Shown here one piece after another: positions 7,751-19,024 of a DNA stretch of 64,000 nucleotides; position 1 is the first letter of the stretch, and every line of letters begins with the position of its first letter. The notes below the pieces were generated by a model. That model was not told where the DNA came from. It made no database searches and saw only the letters and a list, made by a program, of their open reading frames with translations. Location of the stretch: positions 1 through 64,000 of the IMG/VR virus record IMGVR_UViG_3300022871_000011. One strand, given 5' to 3'. Source of the stretch: a virus. The position numbers and the translations under genes were made by a program.

Positions 7751-8603
7751 CACTATCTCATTTATAACACTTGCTGATGATGGGTACCTCCCGGGGGTCT
7801 TTACATTGTGTCATAGTATTCGTCGCTGGTATCGTGACATCCCTATCCATGTATGGTATCTCATAAAGGATCCAGCCAACTTAGCTAGGCTGAAGGAGTT
7901 CCAGCAGGTGCACAATAATATAATACTACATGATGCTAACCCTTATAAACAGGGCCGTAAGGAGTGGTACCTTAAGCCTGACATAATAGAGGCAACAGAT
8001 ACGGAGTCGTTCATATTTATGGACGCGGACGTATTGTTAACCTATAAGATTCCATCAGTATTTGATACTATAGAAGAGGGTTTTTTGTGGGGCTGCCGCT
8101 CGGGCAACCGGATACCCGCAAAGAATCAAGGGTTAACTAGCGTGCTACGGAGGGTAAAGCCTACTTCGCTAAATAGAGAACACTCACTACTAACCTCAGG
8201 TATTTTTGGTTGTAATAAGGAATTACACAAGAACATCTTAGATAAATTTAGAGCCGGTTGCGCAGATGAGGCGTTCAGGAAAACTGTTTTTGGTGATATG
8301 CATATTCTTAATTACCATATAGCAGTAAACAATTGGTGGCCCAAAGTACACTATTGTTCAGATAATTCTATCTATGGGACCATATTATGTGATATGGAGG
8401 CTACACGCTTTAAAGATGGACTATTTATAGTGTGTAAAGCTCATTCTAAGGGTATAATACGTATTACACATTACAACGGATCCAAGCCTTGGACCGAATC
8501 TGGACGATTAATGCCTAAGCGGAAGCTTAATACCAACTCCATCCAATTATGGGATAATGTCAACGCAAGTGTCCAGGCAGGGAACTCTTTTTGGGTGCCT
8601 TAA
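7743..8603 (+). CDS. GT8-like glycosyltransferase (GT-A fold)
   Basis: 286 aa. FMDADVLL near residue 92 gives the DxD metal/nucleotide-sugar motif. SGIFGCNKELHK near residue 157 and ITHYNGSKPW near 240 match the conserved acceptor-side and H-x-x-G-x-K-P-W elements of the glycogenin/GT8 group. It probably transfers a hexose to a glycan or protein. It overlaps the preceding gene by 8 bases, completing a four-gene glycan cassette. No signal peptide or membrane segment is visible, so it should act in the cytoplasm. Confidence 0.75.
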   Translation: MLDTISFITLADDGYLPGVFTLCHSIRRWYRDIPIHVWYLIKDPANLARLKEFQQVHNNIILHDANPYKQGRKEWYLKPDIIEATDTESFIFMDADVLLTYKIPSVFDTIEEGFLWGCRSGNRIPAKNQGLTSVLRRVKPTSLNREHSLLTSGIFGCNKELHKNILDKFRAGCADEAFRKTVFGDMHILNYHIAVNNWWPKVHYCSDNSIYGTILCDMEATRFKDGLFIVCKAHSKGIIRITHYNGSKPWTESGRLMPKRKLNTNSIQLWDNVNASVQAGNSFWVP

Positions 8604-8636
8604 GGCCTTAAATAGGGGTATTTTAGCCTTGTTAAA

Positions 8637-8684
8637 CCCCTTTAAACCCCTTTAAAACCCCTTAAAACCCCTTATTTTACCCCC
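8637..8684 (-). other. Potential G-quadruplex array
   Basis: On the minus strand there are five runs of four or five G (complementing 8637-8640, 8647-8650, 8658-8661, 8668-8671, 8680-8684) separated by 6-8 T/A bases. This is the layout of telomere-like G4 sequences. It would sit downstream of the leftward serine-tract gene in its transcript. It may assist termination or mark a DNA-processing site; neither is shown. Confidence 0.55.
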
Positions 8685-8713
8685 AAAAACACCGAAAATA
8701 GGCCTTTTTTCTT

Positions 8714-8730
8714 GGCATTATATACTAGAA
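8714..8730 (+). promoter_or_regulatory. 17-mer shared with 56361-56377
   Basis: GGCATTATATACTAGAA occurs here and, identically, at 56361. In both places AAAATAGGC lies upstream (10 and 22 bases away). TATATACTAG has the AT-rich look of a promoter -10 region, but no consensus -35 is evident. Both copies lie in gene-free spacers. Confidence 0.45.
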
Positions 8731-8904
8731 CAATAGAGTCTATAACTACGTTGTTCGGGGTTACTTTTTTTTCGCTATGAGCTGACCTAAATGGTGATAA
8801 GGATCTGTTTAGGTGGAATATTAAACACGTCAAAATGCGTATCGAAGACTGACATAATGTCGTCTCTTGAAGAAGTCGATTAATACAAGGCTCGTAGTGA
8901 ATTT

Positions 8905-9861
8905 TTAAGTACTGCTACTGCTCTCTGAGCTACTCTCGCTGCTATTAGAGCTACTGCTACTTTCGCTAGTATAACTGCTACTGCTATCACTGCTCTGACT
9001 TGTGCTACTGCTGCTATAAGCCCCGGCTGCTGTGCTACTGGAACTTTCGTTCTCAACCCACCCGCCGCTGCTCTCGCTACCGCTGCTATCAGTCTTGGTA
9101 CTCTCACTAGAGAAGCTACTGGAGCTTGTTAGGCTTGTGCTACTGCTGGAGTTACTACTAAGTGTGCTGCTACTATCACTGCTCTCACTACTGGAGAGAG
9201 AACTTCTGCGACTGCTCTCACTGGCACTACTATCAGATCTACTGGTCGGTGTGCTTTCTGAGCTGCTTAAGGATGTTGCACTACTTGTGCTGTCACTACT
9301 GGAGCTTAAGCTACTTGAGCTTGAACTACTAAGTGAGCTACTGCTGCTGCTAGATGCTAGGCTTCTAAGAGCTTCACTGCTGCTACTATTACTGGAGCTA
9401 CTGTCTGAGCTACTGGAACTATCATATACTGTGTAGTTGAAGTTAACAGTTTCGTCTTCATATAACTCGTCAAGCTTATCTTTATTATTAAGGAGGTATT
9501 GTATGTCCTGTTTGATTATATCCCATGTGGTGTCCATGACATCTACACTGCGGAATACCAGGTCGATATATGTTAGACGGAAGAATGGGATATCCCCTAC
9601 AGGCTCATTTTTTGGATAGTCTGCCATGTCGCTCGTCGAAGCAATATTGCAGAACTTATCATCCGGCACTATTTCTCCTGGTAAACTTGGGAATCTTTGG
9701 TAAACCATCACCTCGGGTTCCATTCCGACATGTTCAGATATCCATGCCCTCAACCGGTGTGTTCCCTCGGGCTGTAGTCGAGTTATTTTTGATTTAAGTT
9801 GTAAGCCGTATGATGACATATTTTTTAACCTCTCTATAGTGTTATCCTTAATATACGTCAT
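8905..9861 (-). CDS. Serine-tract protein C
   Basis: 318 aa, leftward. Residues 1-150 are an ordinary mixed alpha/beta domain (ITRLQPEGTHRLRAWISEH, FFRLTYIDLVFRSVDVMD). Residues 150-318 are serine tracts mixed with Glu, Thr, Asp and Leu, ending in SSSST. Unlike proteins A and B it has no N-terminal MSRIQP cap and no SLGLT repeats, so the low-complexity tail probably arose separately or was acquired. An internal ATG at 9819 has a better ribosome binding site (GAGAGG) and may be the true start, giving 304 aa. Function unknown; likely a virion protein. Confidence 0.7.
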   Translation of the reverse strand: MTYIKDNTIERLKNMSSYGLQLKSKITRLQPEGTHRLRAWISEHVGMEPEVMVYQRFPSLPGEIVPDDKFCNIASTSDMADYPKNEPVGDIPFFRLTYIDLVFRSVDVMDTTWDIIKQDIQYLLNNKDKLDELYEDETVNFNYTVYDSSSSSDSSSSNSSSSEALRSLASSSSSSSLSSSSSSSLSSSSDSTSSATSLSSSESTPTSRSDSSASESSRRSSLSSSESSDSSSTLSSNSSSSTSLTSSSSFSSESTKTDSSGSESSGGWVENESSSSTAAGAYSSSSTSQSSDSSSSYTSESSSSSNSSESSSESSSST

Positions 9862-9997
9862 ATGTGAGGACTTGTAAAGCGTACCACATGATTATATATT
9901 AACTTATCATGGGACGCAGACCTTATACAACTGAATATTTTATTAAACAAGCCACACAGATTCATGGCTTAAAGTTCAATTAGACTCAATAATTGAA

Positions 9998-14873: not shown

Positions 14874-15181
14874 AGCTCGCGCTTGTCAGGGTCTTCGTTC
14901 TTTTTAAGACGTTGTTCCTTGGCCTCGCCGACGCGCTCAATAATGTCCTTAACGATGTCCATCATGACTTTGGCATCTTTTACCTTTTCTAGCTTGGAAG
15001 CTATTACAACAAGCACCTCTGCTCGTTCGATGGCTTCCTCGATAGAAAGGATCTTGGTTTCGACTGGGTTACCAATCTCTTTAATACCGTCTTTACGTTT
15101 GCCTGTGTCATAGACCTCCAGGACAACATTACCGTTCTTGGCTGTTACGCCCTTAATGTTCGACATGTGTTGGGATTCCAT
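14870..15181 (-). CDS. Small helical protein downstream of terminase
   Basis: 103 aa, leftward, GGAGG five bases before the ATG. An N-terminal beta-like stretch (KNGNVVLEVYDTG) is followed by long Lys/Glu-rich helices that look like coiled coil (IEEAIERAEVLVVIASKLEKVKDAKVMMDIVKDIIE). It follows TerL by 12 bases and is surely co-transcribed with it. It could be a packaging accessory protein; a small terminase subunit would usually precede TerL and carry an HTH, which I do not see. Confidence 0.6.
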   Translation of the reverse strand: MESQHMSNIKGVTAKNGNVVLEVYDTGKRKDGIKEIGNPVETKILSIEEAIERAEVLVVIASKLEKVKDAKVMMDIVKDIIERVGEAKEQRLKKNEDPDKREL

Positions 15182-15193
15182 AATATCCTCCGG

Positions 15194-18100
15194 TTACCAA
15201 ACTACTTTCTCTGGATCAGTCGGGGCCGCTAAGGCCAGCTGCTGTTCCGTTATTGTAAACTTATCCTTGACAGTGTTCATGTCAGGGTACGATTGACGTG
15301 TGTGCCATATGGCCGAACACGCATAATTTAAAGCATGGGCAAAGTCATCACTCTTTTTGGGAGCTTTGCCTATAAGATACATAATACCGCCTCTGGGTAA
15401 TTCCCGGGGCATCTCTACAAGGTTAAGTAGATCATCCAGTACTATCTTGGATTCGTCATCATAGAACGGCAGTGAGATCTTATGTGCCCTTAACATAGCG
15501 CACATAACAGCCAAGCTCCGTGCTTTATCGATGCTGTAAGAGAACCGGGTACCGTTACCTGTAGGTGGGTTATAGGTTATAACATCTTTGTTGGTGCTGC
15601 TAACGTATGTGTAAGGTATGATCTGATGATCGGGCAAACCTGCCTGTCTCATCAAGGATTCCCTAACATAACCTGCGCCACCATAATCATGTGCCATATA
15701 GACACACTGAAACTTGCGGAACTGATCCATGATATACATGGACTCTTCTTCAGGGCTCATACCCATGGGGAGCCTCTCAGAGTATAAGTTATCTACTACA
15801 TCTGTACCGTTACGGAAACCCACGACGGCTAATGCAGTGTAGCTCTCTGATAAGTCTCCGCCACCACTCCAGTCAACACCCATAACATAACCGGAATACT
15901 GGTTGCGCAACTTAATTGTAGCAGCCATATCATTCTTATGTTTACCGGCCGCTGAGATTAAGTCGGCTTGTGATAATAGTTTAACGTTTTCATCGCAAGG
16001 CACCCCCAGTACCTCGTTATAGAATTTAGCCTTAGAGTAGGACCCGGGACCTTCCATTTTACCGAGTAGGGCCTGCCACTTAGCTTTAATCCCATAATGA
16101 AGAGGATGTGTTACCTGGCAGAAATGATAACCAGCATGCGTGGCAGCCAAGTCAGGCCGTGCATGTACATAGTAACCCCGGCGCCCATCTAAGGTGCCCC
16201 CGCATTTGGCACATATAATAGTTTTCTTACCCAGCATCTTAATCAGGTCCTGCTCAATCGATGCTATATTCTTTTTACGACAGTGACTACAAGGGATACA
16301 CCACTCCGCCATACTACTGTCGTTCCACACCACTGCAAGTGTTCCATCCGACGTCTTAGGCGTACCGGTATATTGCTGGAAACCGAAGTACCTATTTGCA
16401 CTTGTTGTTTCGAATAAAATTGGGAGGAAATCGTAGTCAATGTCTTGGCAATTAAGGCTTTGCACATTATTTGCAAGAATATAATTATGCGTTCCGACCA
16501 CCTCTATATCGTAAACAGGCTGCACAGCTGTAACCTCTATTTTAGATATTCTGCTAAGGGTTACGCCTGCTCCAGCTTCCTTGCACGGTAACGCCGCTGG
16601 TTGTCCCTCAACTTTAACTTCTGACACACCTCGGCCTGGCAGACGGTGCTTGTCTTCTTGTAGAGGGGTTCCCCGCAGTACCTGCAATGGCCTGTTGGCC
16701 CTTTCGCCAGTATTTTGCGCTTGTGCCGGGCATTCGTTATAAGGCGCTGTCTTTCTTTCTCTGCAGGGTCGTTGGCAAGCCTCTCTTTCCTGCGTTGGTC
16801 CGACCGGGCATTCTGTTCTTTTACTTTGTCGGGGTTGTTCTTGCGCCACTCTTTTGTGTGCACTGCCTCTGCTTTGTGGTCCCTGCGTGCGTTGGCCTTG
16901 TCCAGCCGATCTCTGTAGCGTCCCTGGTCCTTCTTTAATTTTGCATAATACCGTTTGCGCTCCGACTGTAGACTTGCTTCGTATGCCGGGTCTCCCTTTA
17001 GCGATGTCCGCTTGTCGCGTTTGCGTTCGTTTACAAGGTCCCTGTTGCGTTCCAGGTAGGCTGCTGCATGCTTTCTTCCCATTGCCCTGCTGTACACTAG
17101 GTCCTTGTAGTAACAGCGCCTGGCTATTATCCTGGATTGTTCCGGGTTGGCACGGCGCCACTCCGCGGACTTCTCCATTATGTATTCTTTGTTTTCTTCG
17201 TAATATTCGTGTTTGACTATGTGATCGTACTCCTCTTTGCATGCACCCTCGCATACCCATGCTCCCTTGGTTAGCTCTGCCCCGCACATTAAGCAACGGT
17301 GTTCTATACGGTTTATCTTGTAAGCCATCGGTGCAGGCATGTAAGGTGCTATCAACGGTATCAGGGTTATTGTGCCCTTCGCAGTTATGTATAGCAGAGG
17401 GTACGTGAAGACTTCCCCGTCCCTCGTTTTGTTCACCATATACACTTTGCTCTCCACACCATACTTGGCCATTAGCCATGTAGATAGCAGGTCCACTTCC
17501 TCCGGGCTGAACCCGTGAGTCGATATGCTCACAGTCCTGCGTCCGCTGTCCAGACATCCGTCGTCCCCTATCCACCACGCTATCCCCTCGGGGGTCAGCT
17601 GTGAGAGCCACTCCGTGTTCACTAGCTTGTGATGCCCGTCCGGGCATGTTAGGGTGAAGATATAGTGAAACACTGAGAGGGCCTGCGTCCTCCAGACACT
17701 CGACCATTCTCCGTAACCCCCGTTCTTGATCTTGTAAGGTGCTCTGGTGGCGTACTCTGCTAACAGGGCGTACTTCTCCAGGTTGTATTGGTGCTGGCAC
17801 CACCCGTGATTTGAGCGGTAACATACAGTCTGCTTGGCTGCGCTGCTTACCTGCATTGAGCCATCCCCTAGCATCGTACCCAGTAACAGCTGCTTCTGTG
17901 ATGCCGTCAAAGTCTCCGGTTTGTTTTGCATACTCATAATTTATTACCTCCGATAATCGTACAGGGCCTATAGATGTGGGGAATGAATGATCACCCGTAC
18001 ACTCTATTGTTTCACCTGTCTCTAGTGTAACTTTAAAACACAGCCGCTCCCCGTGATAGGAAGCATCCTTTGCTGCGATACTATTTAACACTGTACCATC

Positions 18101-18700
18101 ATTGTTGAAAGAATGCAAGTACTCACCTGCTTTAACTTCACAGACCTTTTTGGATGAAAAAGTCACTCCGTCATAACTCGTTGATATTAAAGTATTTGCG
18201 CTGAGGCTCTCGTCAATTGCGACACATGAGATTGAGGATATGCCCCTCACACGATCGGGATTTAGGTAGCAATATTCTAGGAATATCATAGACCCAGAAT
18301 GGAACTCTTTCGTGTAGAATTTACCCACCTCCTGGTCCGACATCATATCGCTCTTTATGAGAGAGTGTTTAAGAAGAGGCCTCAGGATGGTAGCATTATA
18401 GCGGGCCAACTGGTCAGCACGGGGCTCGATTATAAGTGTATGGAAGCCTTTGTAGTAGTGGGCCCTTAAAATAGCCTGTGCACTTAGGCTCAGACTTTTT
18501 CCTACTTGCCGTGAGCAGCAATATACAACAGATCTAGGTTGTTCAAATTCGAAGAATGGTGCCATCTGATAATGGAGGTCAGTTGACATATGTTCTTCAC
18601 CTATTTTGAACACAGGTAAGAGAGGTGCAAAGGATGTAACCCACCCCTCATCTACAGCGCGGAAGTATTCCGCAATGAATTGATTCGTATTAAGACCCAA
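15194..18700 (-). CDS. Terminase large subunit precursor containing an intein
   Basis: 1168 aa precursor, leftward. The ATPase part shows Walker A CCSRQVGKS (residues 61-69) and Walker B SCVAIDE (158-164). The nuclease part shows MGVDWSGGGDLSES, MAHDYGGAG and SDDFAHALNYA, the acidic metal-binding segments of TerL. Between Walker B and CQDIDYDFLPILFET sits a 586-residue intein (DNA 16451-18208). Removing it gives a 582-aa TerL with an uninterrupted VAIDE-CQDID motor motif, normal for the family. TerL packages DNA into the procapsid, cutting concatemers and driving translocation with ATP. The middle of the intein in this frame is low-complexity and overlaps a different gene. Confidence 0.9.
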   Translation of the reverse strand: MGLNTNQFIAEYFRAVDEGWVTSFAPLLPVFKIGEEHMSTDLHYQMAPFFEFEQPRSVVYCCSRQVGKSLSLSAQAILRAHYYKGFHTLIIEPRADQLARYNATILRPLLKHSLIKSDMMSDQEVGKFYTKEFHSGSMIFLEYCYLNPDRVRGISSISCVAIDESLSANTLISTSYDGVTFSSKKVCEVKAGEYLHSFNNDGTVLNSIAAKDASYHGERLCFKVTLETGETIECTGDHSFPTSIGPVRLSEVINYEYAKQTGDFDGITEAAVTGYDARGWLNAGKQRSQADCMLPLKSRVVPAPIQPGEVRPVSRVRHQSTLQDQERGLRRMVECLEDAGPLSVSLYLHPNMPGRASQASEHGVALTADPRGDSVVDRGRRMSGQRTQDCEHIDSRVQPGGSGPAIYMANGQVWCGEQSVYGEQNEGRGSLHVPSAIHNCEGHNNPDTVDSTLHACTDGLQDKPYRTPLLNVRGRANQGSMGMRGCMQRGVRSHSQTRILRRKQRIHNGEVRGVAPCQPGTIQDNSQALLLQGPSVQQGNGKKACSSLPGTQQGPCKRTQTRQADIAKGRPGIRSKSTVGAQTVLCKIKEGPGTLQRSAGQGQRTQGPQSRGSAHKRVAQEQPRQSKRTECPVGPTQEREACQRPCRERKTAPYNECPAQAQNTGERANRPLQVLRGTPLQEDKHRLPGRGVSEVKVEGQPAALPCKEAGAGVTLSRISKIEVTAVQPVYDIEVVGTHNYILANNVQSLNCQDIDYDFLPILFETTSANRYFGFQQYTGTPKTSDGTLAVVWNDSSMAEWCIPCSHCRKKNIASIEQDLIKMLGKKTIICAKCGGTLDGRRGYYVHARPDLAATHAGYHFCQVTHPLHYGIKAKWQALLGKMEGPGSYSKAKFYNEVLGVPCDENVKLLSQADLISAAGKHKNDMAATIKLRNQYSGYVMGVDWSGGGDLSESYTALAVVGFRNGTDVVDNLYSERLPMGMSPEEESMYIMDQFRKFQCVYMAHDYGGAGYVRESLMRQAGLPDHQIIPYTYVSSTNKDVITYNPPTGNGTRFSYSIDKARSLAVMCAMLRAHKISLPFYDDESKIVLDDLLNLVEMPRELPRGGIMYLIGKAPKKSDDFAHALNYACSAIWHTRQSYPDMNTVKDKFTITEQQLALAAPTDPEKVVW
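16451..18208 (-). mobile_element. Intein inserted in TerL Walker B
   Basis: 586 codons. It begins with Ser1 (SLSANTLIST, block A), has GETIECTGDHSFPT (block B, TxxH), and ends with VYDIEVVGTHNYILANN...SLN followed by Cys+1 of the C-extein (blocks F and G). The penultimate residue is Leu instead of the usual His, seen in a minority of active inteins. Splicing domains occupy roughly the first 95 and last 35-40 residues. The DNA between them carries a LAGLIDADG gene in the +1-shifted frame, while the intein frame stays open through it. Confidence 0.85.
16561..17937 (-). CDS. LAGLIDADG homing endonuclease nested out of frame in the TerL intein
   Basis: 458 aa, fully inside the intein DNA but in a different frame from TerL. 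It has its own GGAGG site, an in-frame TAA just upstream of the ATG, and its own stop, so it is a separate gene. LLLGTMLGDGSMQ (residue 17) and IAWWIGDDGCLD (about residue 118) are the two LAGLIDADG helices with the catalytic acidic residues. The C-terminal 240 residues have a Cys pair motif (CLMCG...CEGAC), repeated basic RRANPEQ/RKNNPDKV helices typical of DNA-binding tails of phage endonucleases, and a final CRYCGEP...CQAEVC zinc site. It should cut intein-less terL alleles and spread the intein. Confidence 0.85.
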   Translation of the reverse strand: MSMQNKPETLTASQKQLLLGTMLGDGSMQVSSAAKQTVCYRSNHGWCQHQYNLEKYALLAEYATRAPYKIKNGGYGEWSSVWRTQALSVFHYIFTLTCPDGHHKLVNTEWLSQLTPEGIAWWIGDDGCLDSGRRTVSISTHGFSPEEVDLLSTWLMAKYGVESKVYMVNKTRDGEVFTYPLLYITAKGTITLIPLIAPYMPAPMAYKINRIEHRCLMCGAELTKGAWVCEGACKEEYDHIVKHEYYEENKEYIMEKSAEWRRANPEQSRIIARRCYYKDLVYSRAMGRKHAAAYLERNRDLVNERKRDKRTSLKGDPAYEASLQSERKRYYAKLKKDQGRYRDRLDKANARRDHKAEAVHTKEWRKNNPDKVKEQNARSDQRRKERLANDPAEKERQRLITNARHKRKILAKGPTGHCRYCGEPLYKKTSTVCQAEVCQKLKLRDNQRRYRARKLEQA

Positions 18701-18763
18701 ACGTTCCTCCTAAGTGCTTCGACAGCACACAAACTTATTATTTAATTTATTCGCATAAAGATG

Positions 18764-18780
18764 TTTTGTAAAGTATATTA
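18764..18780 (+). promoter_or_regulatory. Promoter-like motif TTTGTAAAG-TATATTA
   Basis: Lies 23 bases before the ATG at 18803 in the divergent gap after TerL. The same blocks precede the leftward gene at 10315. Likely start of the rightward accessory operon; transcription start not determinable here. Confidence 0.45.
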
Positions 18781-18802
18781 GCATAAAATACAGGAATTGC
18801 AA

Positions 18803-19024
18803 ATGCCGAGTCAGAGCTCAAGAGAAGCACTCAAGCGTAAAAAGCTTGATTTTAATGAATTGAATAATGATTCTGCCGGTCCTTATAAGACCCGCGGACT
18901 CATTTCCCATGACCGACCGTTTGAGGAGACGGTAGCACTACGACCTATTGACACAGTCAAGGATCGTGGGGCGACTTTACCTCTGGACGATGGCGAGTGG
19001 AACGATTCATCTTCCAGCTCATGA
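18803..19024 (+). CDS. Hypothetical protein with Ser tail
   Basis: 73 aa from the ATG at 18803. Polar and charged throughout: SSREALKRKKLDFNELNND, then FEETVALRPIDTVKDRG, ending WNDSSSSS. No domain recognised. First gene of the rightward run divergent from TerL, placed behind a promoter-like motif. Function unknown. Confidence 0.55.
   Translation: MPSQSSREALKRKKLDFNELNNDSAGPYKTRGLISHDRPFEETVALRPIDTVKDRGATLPLDDGEWNDSSSSS

What the first reader, a model, noticed from the sequence alone, without database searches (positions are those of the whole stretch)
16561..17937. A complete homing endonuclease gene overprinted in another frame inside the TerL intein
Normal large inteins carry the endonuclease fused in frame between splicing blocks. 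Here the LAGLIDADG enzyme is in the +1-shifted frame with its own GGAGG site, an in-frame TAA six bases before its ATG, and its own stop. The TerL/intein frame stays open for the same 458 codons although it encodes only low-complexity Gln/Arg/Gly/Pro/Ser text. That frame must stay open for TerL to be made, so two genes appear to be kept on one strand by selection. This would separate endonuclease expression from protein splicing.
Basis: partly seen in the sequence, partly recalled or inferred. Interest (0 to 1): 0.92.

Follow-up and report, generated by a model that had tools for sequence, protein, structure and literature searches.

The report
Endonuclease gene overprinted inside an intein
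A phage packaging gene carries a self-removing protein insert (intein) whose DNA-cutting enzyme is written in a shifted reading frame of the same DNA; the same arrangement turns up in other phages and in dozens of cyanobacterial replication genes, and sequence statistics show that both frames are kept by selection.

Summary
A 458-aa LAGLIDADG_2 homing endonuclease ORF (16561-17937, minus strand) lies +1-shifted inside the intein of a phage terminase (TerL). The TerL frame has no stop across it, although codon shuffling predicts about 14. It is not a one-off. Motif scans found the same architecture in 12 TerL inteins (window included), six phage helicase inteins (one in cultured phage FoX3, whose relatives carry the clean empty site) and about 45 distinct cyanobacterial DnaX inteins. 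The frame offset is constant within each lineage: +1 in TerL, +2 in DnaX/helicase. Host-frame stops are absent from every complete case, while the third frame and canonical in-frame homologues show the expected number. In DnaX, dN/dS in the overlap is about 0.2 in the endonuclease frame and 1.0-1.2 in the host frame, against 0.01-0.13 in the host frame on either side: the host frame is kept open but not conserved. The endonuclease probably starts at its own SD/ATG, and protein splicing discards the overprinted filler. Splicing, expression and cutting were not tested. The closest published case found (ShiLan out-of-frame HNH) is not an intein. Two papers that could hold priority could not be read.

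The parts
15194..18700 (-). TerL ORF with intein (1168 aa precursor, TTG start as called)
18209..18700 (-). TerL N-extein, ends at the Walker B motif (VAIDE)
   Evidence: sequence; homology of the spliced protein to phage terminases
16451..18208 (-). Intein in the TerL frame, 586 aa, Ser1 to Asn586, followed by Cys+1
   Evidence: TIGR01445, TIGR01443, PF14890; alignment with L017, L248, L266
17948..18208 (-). N-terminal splicing region including the block B TGDH motif
   Evidence: TIGR01445 21 bits (cut-off 24.5)
16451..16549 (-). C-terminal splicing region (DIEVVGTHNYIL...SLN|C); the usual penultimate His is Leu
   Evidence: TIGR01443 18.9 bits (cut-off 15.6)
17947..17951 (-). GGAGG Shine-Dalgarno-like site, written in intein codons for Ser-Glu-Val
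   Evidence: the same TTATCGGAGGT stretch with 9-nt spacing in L017
17941..17943 (-). In-frame TAA upstream of the endonuclease ATG
16561..17937 (-). Overprinted homing endonuclease gene, 458 aa plus stop, frame +1 relative to TerL
17380..17892 (-). LAGLIDADG_2 nuclease domain (residues 16-186), I-SceI/I-WcaI-like fold
   Evidence: PF03161 E=2e-21; Foldseek to 6x1j E=1e-13, TM 0.71 by target length
17218..17298 (-). Cysteine knuckle (CxxC...C), probable zinc-binding module
   Evidence: Invariant C215, C218, C233 in ten nested TerL endonucleases; weak PF09889
16705..17244 (-). Long basic helical tail of the endonuclease (residues 232-411)
   Evidence: AlphaFold2, pLDDT mostly above 80
15194..16450 (-). 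TerL C-extein, begins CQDIDYDF

Best explanation
This is an intein in which the homing endonuclease is not fused in frame between the splicing regions but is a complete gene of its own, nested out of frame in the linker. A ribosome making TerL reads N-extein, N-splicing region, about 460 codons of meaningless but open filler, C-splicing region and C-extein; protein splicing then removes the intein with the filler and joins TerL at its Walker B motif (inferred from motifs and homology). Another ribosome starts at the internal GGAGG/ATG and makes the 458-aa LAGLIDADG endonuclease as a free protein (inferred). The endonuclease would cut intein-less TerL alleles and so spread the cassette (inferred; in FoX3 the same architecture is a clean insertion between 99%-identical flanks). 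Selection acts on both frames: on the endonuclease frame for protein sequence, on the host frame only for absence of stops (shown, most fully in the DnaX homologues). It belongs to a recurrent class in phage TerL, phage helicases and cyanobacterial DnaX, with at least two origins judged by the different frame offsets.
For:: 0 host-frame stops versus 14.4 expected; 57:0 codon-ending avoidance, p=8e-10; the same layout in TerL, helicase and DnaX inteins with a lineage-constant offset and 0 host stops in every complete case; 58 distinct nested sequences with 0 stops versus 7.2 and 3.6 expected each; third frame and 111 in-frame or no-intein controls as expected, none stop-free; dN/dS 0.16-0.23 (endonuclease frame) and 1.04-1.19 (host frame) in the overlap, 0.01-0.13 in the host frame of the flanking regions; host frame stays open where the endonuclease has decayed; clean empty site in FoX2 and other FoX3 relatives; endonuclease frame folds, host-frame filler does not. 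L095, split version with own SD, other frames full of stops. TerL whole once the intein is removed.
Against: No direct evidence of translation, splicing or cutting. The window intein scores below the Pfam cut-off (31.4 vs 35.8 bits with the two ends joined), starts with Ser and lacks the usual penultimate His, so its splicing activity is not assured. Several relatives have no strong SD before the likely start (L067, L117, L248). No close relative or empty site of this particular TerL was found. dN/dS was measured on the DnaX group, not on the too divergent TerL group.
Confidence: 0.87

Rival explanations
1. Assembly or sequencing indels at both ends shifted an ordinary in-frame endonuclease out of frame.
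For: The window is a single metagenomic virus contig without close relatives.
Against: The same offset recurs in independent contigs (L017, L248, L266, L117 and others), in the cultured phage FoX3 and in dozens of cyanobacterial genomes. The endonuclease has its own SD, ATG and stop, and the stop avoidance in the other frame cannot come from an error.
Confidence: 0.01
2. The endonuclease is made as a TerL fusion by programmed ribosomal frameshifting rather than by internal initiation.
For: The start region is overlapped by actively translated TerL sequence; some relatives lack a strong SD.
Against: In the window an in-frame TAA lies 6 nt before the ATG and GGAGG sits 9 nt before it; the split relative L095 has its own GGAGG/ATG for the endonuclease.
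Confidence: 0.07
3. The insertion is a self-splicing RNA intron carrying an endonuclease gene, and the open TerL frame is incidental.
For: LAGLIDADG endonuclease genes are common in group I introns.
Against: No Rfam match at E up to 1 over 15000-18900; both ends match protein-splicing domains; an intron would not need an open host frame, yet stops are strictly avoided.
Confidence: 0.02
4. The host-frame filler has a function of its own as protein (for example a structured linker needed for splicing).
For: The host frame keeps some similarity between TerL inteins (24-35% identity over 86-175 aa).
Against: That similarity is largely expected as an echo of the conserved endonuclease frame. In DnaX, host-frame dN/dS in the overlap is 1.04-1.19; mini-inteins with the filler deleted exist with an open host frame; AlphaFold2 predicts no fold.
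Confidence: 0.04

Closest known systems
Canonical bifunctional LAGLIDADG inteins (here KLEP7 RNA-ligase intein L003, L005, L249)
   Same: Same splicing regions and same LAGLIDADG_2 endonuclease family placed between blocks B and F
   Different: There the endonuclease is in frame with the splicing domain (offset 0); here it is a separate shifted gene
ShiLan domain of mycobacteriophage methylases (PMC11855218)
   Same: Endonuclease hidden out of frame in an insertion that leaves the host frame open; patchy distribution
   Different: HNH enzyme, no splicing domain of any kind detected by its authors, so the insertion is thought to stay in the protein; no SD-led start
Fractured genes (split intein with a free-standing endonuclease between the halves; Dassa et al. 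2009, from memory)
   Same: Endonuclease is an independent cistron located inside the intein; locus L095 here has this form with a related endonuclease
   Different: In the window the host polypeptide is not split; both proteins share the same DNA in two frames
Synechocystis (Ssp) DnaX intein (PMC3443213)
   Same: Splicing of engineered short versions is demonstrated in the laboratory; DnaX inteins of other cyanobacteria found here carry the overprinted endonuclease
   Different: I could not identify the PCC 6803 gene itself; the nearest genome found (86% identical N-region) has only a short endonuclease remnant

Membership tests
Intein (protein-splicing element) | N-terminal splicing region with nucleophile at position 1 and block B TxxH | tested here: met
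   Ser1 after DE, TGDH in block B; TIGR01445 E=5e-4, 21 bits, slightly below its 24.5 cut-off; aligned with L017, L248, L266
Intein (protein-splicing element) | C-terminal splicing region ending in Asn, followed by Cys/Ser/Thr | tested here: met
   TIGR01443 18.9 bits, above the 15.6 cut-off; N|C junction; penultimate His replaced by Leu
Intein (protein-splicing element) | Removal restores a continuous host protein | tested here: met
   Spliced TerL covers at least 80% in one piece in 80 phage records, versus none unspliced; GpA_ATPase match spans the junction
Intein (protein-splicing element) | Self-excision with extein ligation | not testable with these tools
   Needs a splicing assay
LAGLIDADG_2 homing endonuclease | PF03161 domain and LAGLIDADG fold | tested here: met
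   E=2e-21, 77 bits vs cut-off 25; I-WcaI/I-SceI fold
LAGLIDADG_2 homing endonuclease | Cleavage of the empty allele and homing | not testable with these tools
   Only indirect: intein presence/absence in near-identical FoX phages
Canonical bifunctional intein | Endonuclease in frame with the splicing domain | tested here: not met
   Offset +1, own start and stop
ShiLan-type out-of-frame endonuclease insertion | Insertion without a splicing domain | tested here: not met
   Splicing regions present; the enzyme is LAGLIDADG, not HNH
Fractured gene / split intein | Host gene broken into separate ORFs around the endonuclease | tested here: not met
   TerL frame open throughout; met in L095
Self-splicing intron | Group I/II RNA structure | tested here: not met
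   no Rfam match at E up to 1 over 15000-18900

The most novel reading that the evidence does not exclude
Overprinted inteins are an unrecognised, widespread architecture with at least two origins. A free endonuclease gene settles out of frame in an intein linker, the essential host protein forces the second frame to stay open, and the arrangement persists over diverse phages and cyanobacteria, decaying to mini-inteins (DnaX) or turning into fractured genes (L095). It would give a route by which inteins gain and lose endonucleases without fusion, and a large natural set of same-strand overlapping genes in bacteria and phages.
Probability: 0.5. Interest if true: 0.88.

Novelty: new variant of a known kind. 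Interest (0 to 1): 0.8.

Why it matters
Inteins are usually described as either mini-inteins or splicing-endonuclease fusions (or split inteins). A further state, with the endonuclease as an independent overprinted gene, changes how intein homing cycles are modelled: expression can be uncoupled from splicing, frameshifts in the endonuclease also break the host gene while nonsense mutations need not, and endonuclease gain needs no in-frame fusion. It also provides a clean set of long same-strand overlapping genes with internal controls, including in a bacterial replication gene (dnaX), and it means that automatic annotation can hide endonucleases inside inteins that seem to have only a long unexplained linker.

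Tried and rejected
(1) Close relatives of the window endonuclease or TerL by peptide pattern in viral contigs: none. (3) Group I/II intron: no Rfam match. (4) Sequencing error: rejected by recurrence. (5) The codon-context test that is decisive for the window (NNT before AA/AG/GA) is uninformative for FoX3 because its host frame is the other shift; the permutation test was used instead. (6) An early idea, written in notebook entry 2, that endonuclease zinc fingers double-code intein block B in the helicase group: coordinates show that only about the first 45 endonuclease codons, before the fingers, overlap block B, so dropped. (7) Structure of the TerL-frame intein: low confidence (mean pLDDT 34), used only to show that the filler has no predicted fold.

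Full report
WHAT IS THERE. The minus-strand ORF 15194-18700 is a terminase large subunit interrupted at its Walker B motif by an intein (Ser at 18206-18208 to Asn at 16451-16453, Cys+1). N- and C-splicing regions are recognisable: TIGR01443 above its cut-off, TIGR01445 21 bits (cut-off 24.5), PF14890 2e-7 for the two ends joined, which is below the Pfam cut-off. Removing the intein turns a protein that no phage record matches over 80% of its length into one aligned in a single piece to 80 records at that coverage, and brings PF05876 just above its cut-off. Between the splicing regions, shifted +1, lies a complete 458-codon gene with GGAGG at 9 nt, an in-frame TAA 6 nt before the ATG, and its own stop. 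Its product is a LAGLIDADG_2 endonuclease (PF03161 2e-21) with a CxxC...C knuckle and a long basic helical tail. AlphaFold2 gives mean pLDDT 83.9, with I-WcaI and I-SceI as best PDB matches. Read in the TerL frame, the same DNA gives no predicted fold (pLDDT about 25-30).

IS IT MORE THAN CHANCE. Holding the endonuclease protein fixed and permuting its synonymous codons gives 14.4 +/- 2.9 stops in the TerL frame (minimum 5 of 3000); observed 0. The avoidance is visible codon by codon: where the next codon begins AA, AG or GA (the only places where a T-ending codon would create a TerL-frame stop), C/T-ending codons end in C 57 times and in T never, against 78:47 elsewhere, p=8e-10. The flanking TerL sequence shows no such bias.

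IT IS A CLASS. The only distant phage relatives by tblastn included Xanthomonas phage FoX3, whose helicase also contains an intein with the endonuclease out of frame. FoX2 is the empty allele: VLWDE|CHHLG, a clean 942-nt insertion, flanks differing by 2/321 and 11/1104 nt. FoX1, FoX2, FoX5, Murka and M29 match the helicase without the intein at 97-99%. IUPAC scans for the AWWxxDDG motif in IMG/VR and GTDB genomes and a class-wide cyanobacterial search (33 of 291 genomes with a match) then gave 12 TerL inteins (including the window; two pairs share an identical endonuclease domain), FoX3 plus five further helicase inteins (three of them on partial contigs) and about 45 distinct cyanobacterial DnaX inteins with this layout, all inserted next to a Walker B motif where I looked at the host sequence. 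The offset is constant within lineages: endonuclease frame +1 relative to the host in TerL, +2 in DnaX and helicase, 0 in 26 canonical inteins. A second motif typical of canonical inteins (WYMDDG) yielded no nested case. In the endonuclease tree the window sits in a TerL-only clade (97/84), DnaX and three helicase members form another (99/83), and three further TerL members and FoX3/L015 are separate. The differing offsets require at least two origins.

SELECTION ON BOTH FRAMES. Over the nuclease domain, all 58 distinct nested sequences have 0 host-frame stops, against 7.2 (TerL) and 3.6 (DnaX/helicase) expected per sequence. In the same sequences the third frame has the expected number (13.9 vs 13.5; 10.6 vs 11.1). 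Of 26 in-frame and 85 no-intein relatives none lacks stops in either other frame. In 29 equal-length DnaX inteins, median dN/dS in the host frame is 0.01 (N-extein), 0.13 (N-splicing region) and 0.08 (C-splicing region). In the overlap it is 1.04-1.19 in the host frame and 0.16-0.23 in the endonuclease frame (a simple pairwise count that ignores the overlap, so the absolute values are rough, the contrast is not). So the conserved protein switches frame inside the intein and back, and the host frame is only kept open. Where the endonuclease has decayed (stops in L257, L264, L283, L297, L310; partial deletions such as L299 and L321-L324; near-complete loss in L327-L330) the host frame remains open. 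In the sampled cyanobacteria about 50 of 390 genomes carry the DnaX intein N-region, all with an unbroken host frame across it, falling into endonuclease-sized and mini-intein-sized genes. Caveat: complete nested cases were collected by requiring both splicing regions in one frame, but not by requiring absence of stops; L095 and L015 lie outside that set.

A NATURAL CONTROL. In viral locus L095 the helicase is split: the N-intein part ends in a stop, the endonuclease follows with its own GGAGG/ATG, and the C-intein part starts with an ATG directly after the endonuclease stop. There the other two frames of the endonuclease hold 25 and 42 stops (this locus is AT-rich). Where the host protein no longer has to be read through, nothing keeps the second frame open.

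HOW IT MOST LIKELY WORKS. Shown: two frames under different selection, recurrence, and intein presence/absence in near-identical phages. Inferred: internal initiation at the SD/ATG (the SD is written in intein codons for Ser-Glu-Val and is conserved in L017); protein splicing removing the filler with the intein; homing by cleavage of intein-less alleles. Programmed frameshifting is less likely because of the TAA just upstream of the ATG. An RNA intron is unlikely.

KNOWN OR NEW. In the 5.4 million papers searched, the closest case is the ShiLan out-of-frame HNH insertion in mycobacteriophage methylases, whose authors found no splicing element (PMC11855218). The Synechocystis DnaX intein is a laboratory splicing tool (PMC3443213), and the passages read do not mention an overlapping endonuclease. 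Two sources that might already contain the idea could not be read: Liu & Hu 1997 on the DnaX intein (from memory) and the preprint 10.1101/2025.01.02.630785 on actinobacteriophage inteins. I therefore rate it a new variant of a known kind, with the priority of the class uncertain.

Noticed in passing
L095 (IMGVR_UViG_3300027896_004357), reverse-strand positions about 8600-9950: Apparent fractured helicase gene: N-extein plus N-intein ending in a stop, a free endonuclease with SD and Cys-rich fingers, then an ATG-started C-intein plus C-extein; predicts trans-splicing.
   Followed up: partly
cyanobacterial DnaX loci L250-L300 and L301-L350: DnaX inteins show all stages from intact overprinted endonuclease through nonsense-bearing and partly deleted forms to mini-inteins of about 140 codons, with the host frame always open.
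   Followed up: partly
NC_055837.1 26902-29268 (FoX3): The intein-containing helicase is annotated as head morphogenesis in RefSeq and as putative DNA helicase in GenBank MT161383; neither record lists the nested endonuclease under the match.
   Followed up: partly
L251, L252, L270, L278, L280, L282, L289: A separate clade of AWW-type LAGLIDADG_2 endonucleases in Bacillota genomes with no intein regions detected nearby; their context (intron or free-standing) was not examined.
   Followed up: no
L015 (IMGVR_UViG_3300049716_000014 stretch, positions 1-631): FoX3-like nested helicase intein whose host frame changes between block F and the last residues, by a recent indel or a sequence error.
   Followed up: no
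L005 2679-5859 and L116 3688-4930: Further intein-like regions without a LAGLIDADG_2 match: two short ones beside the canonical intein in the uncultured jumbo phage LR756508, and a second intein in L116 whose middle part was not identified.
   Followed up: no
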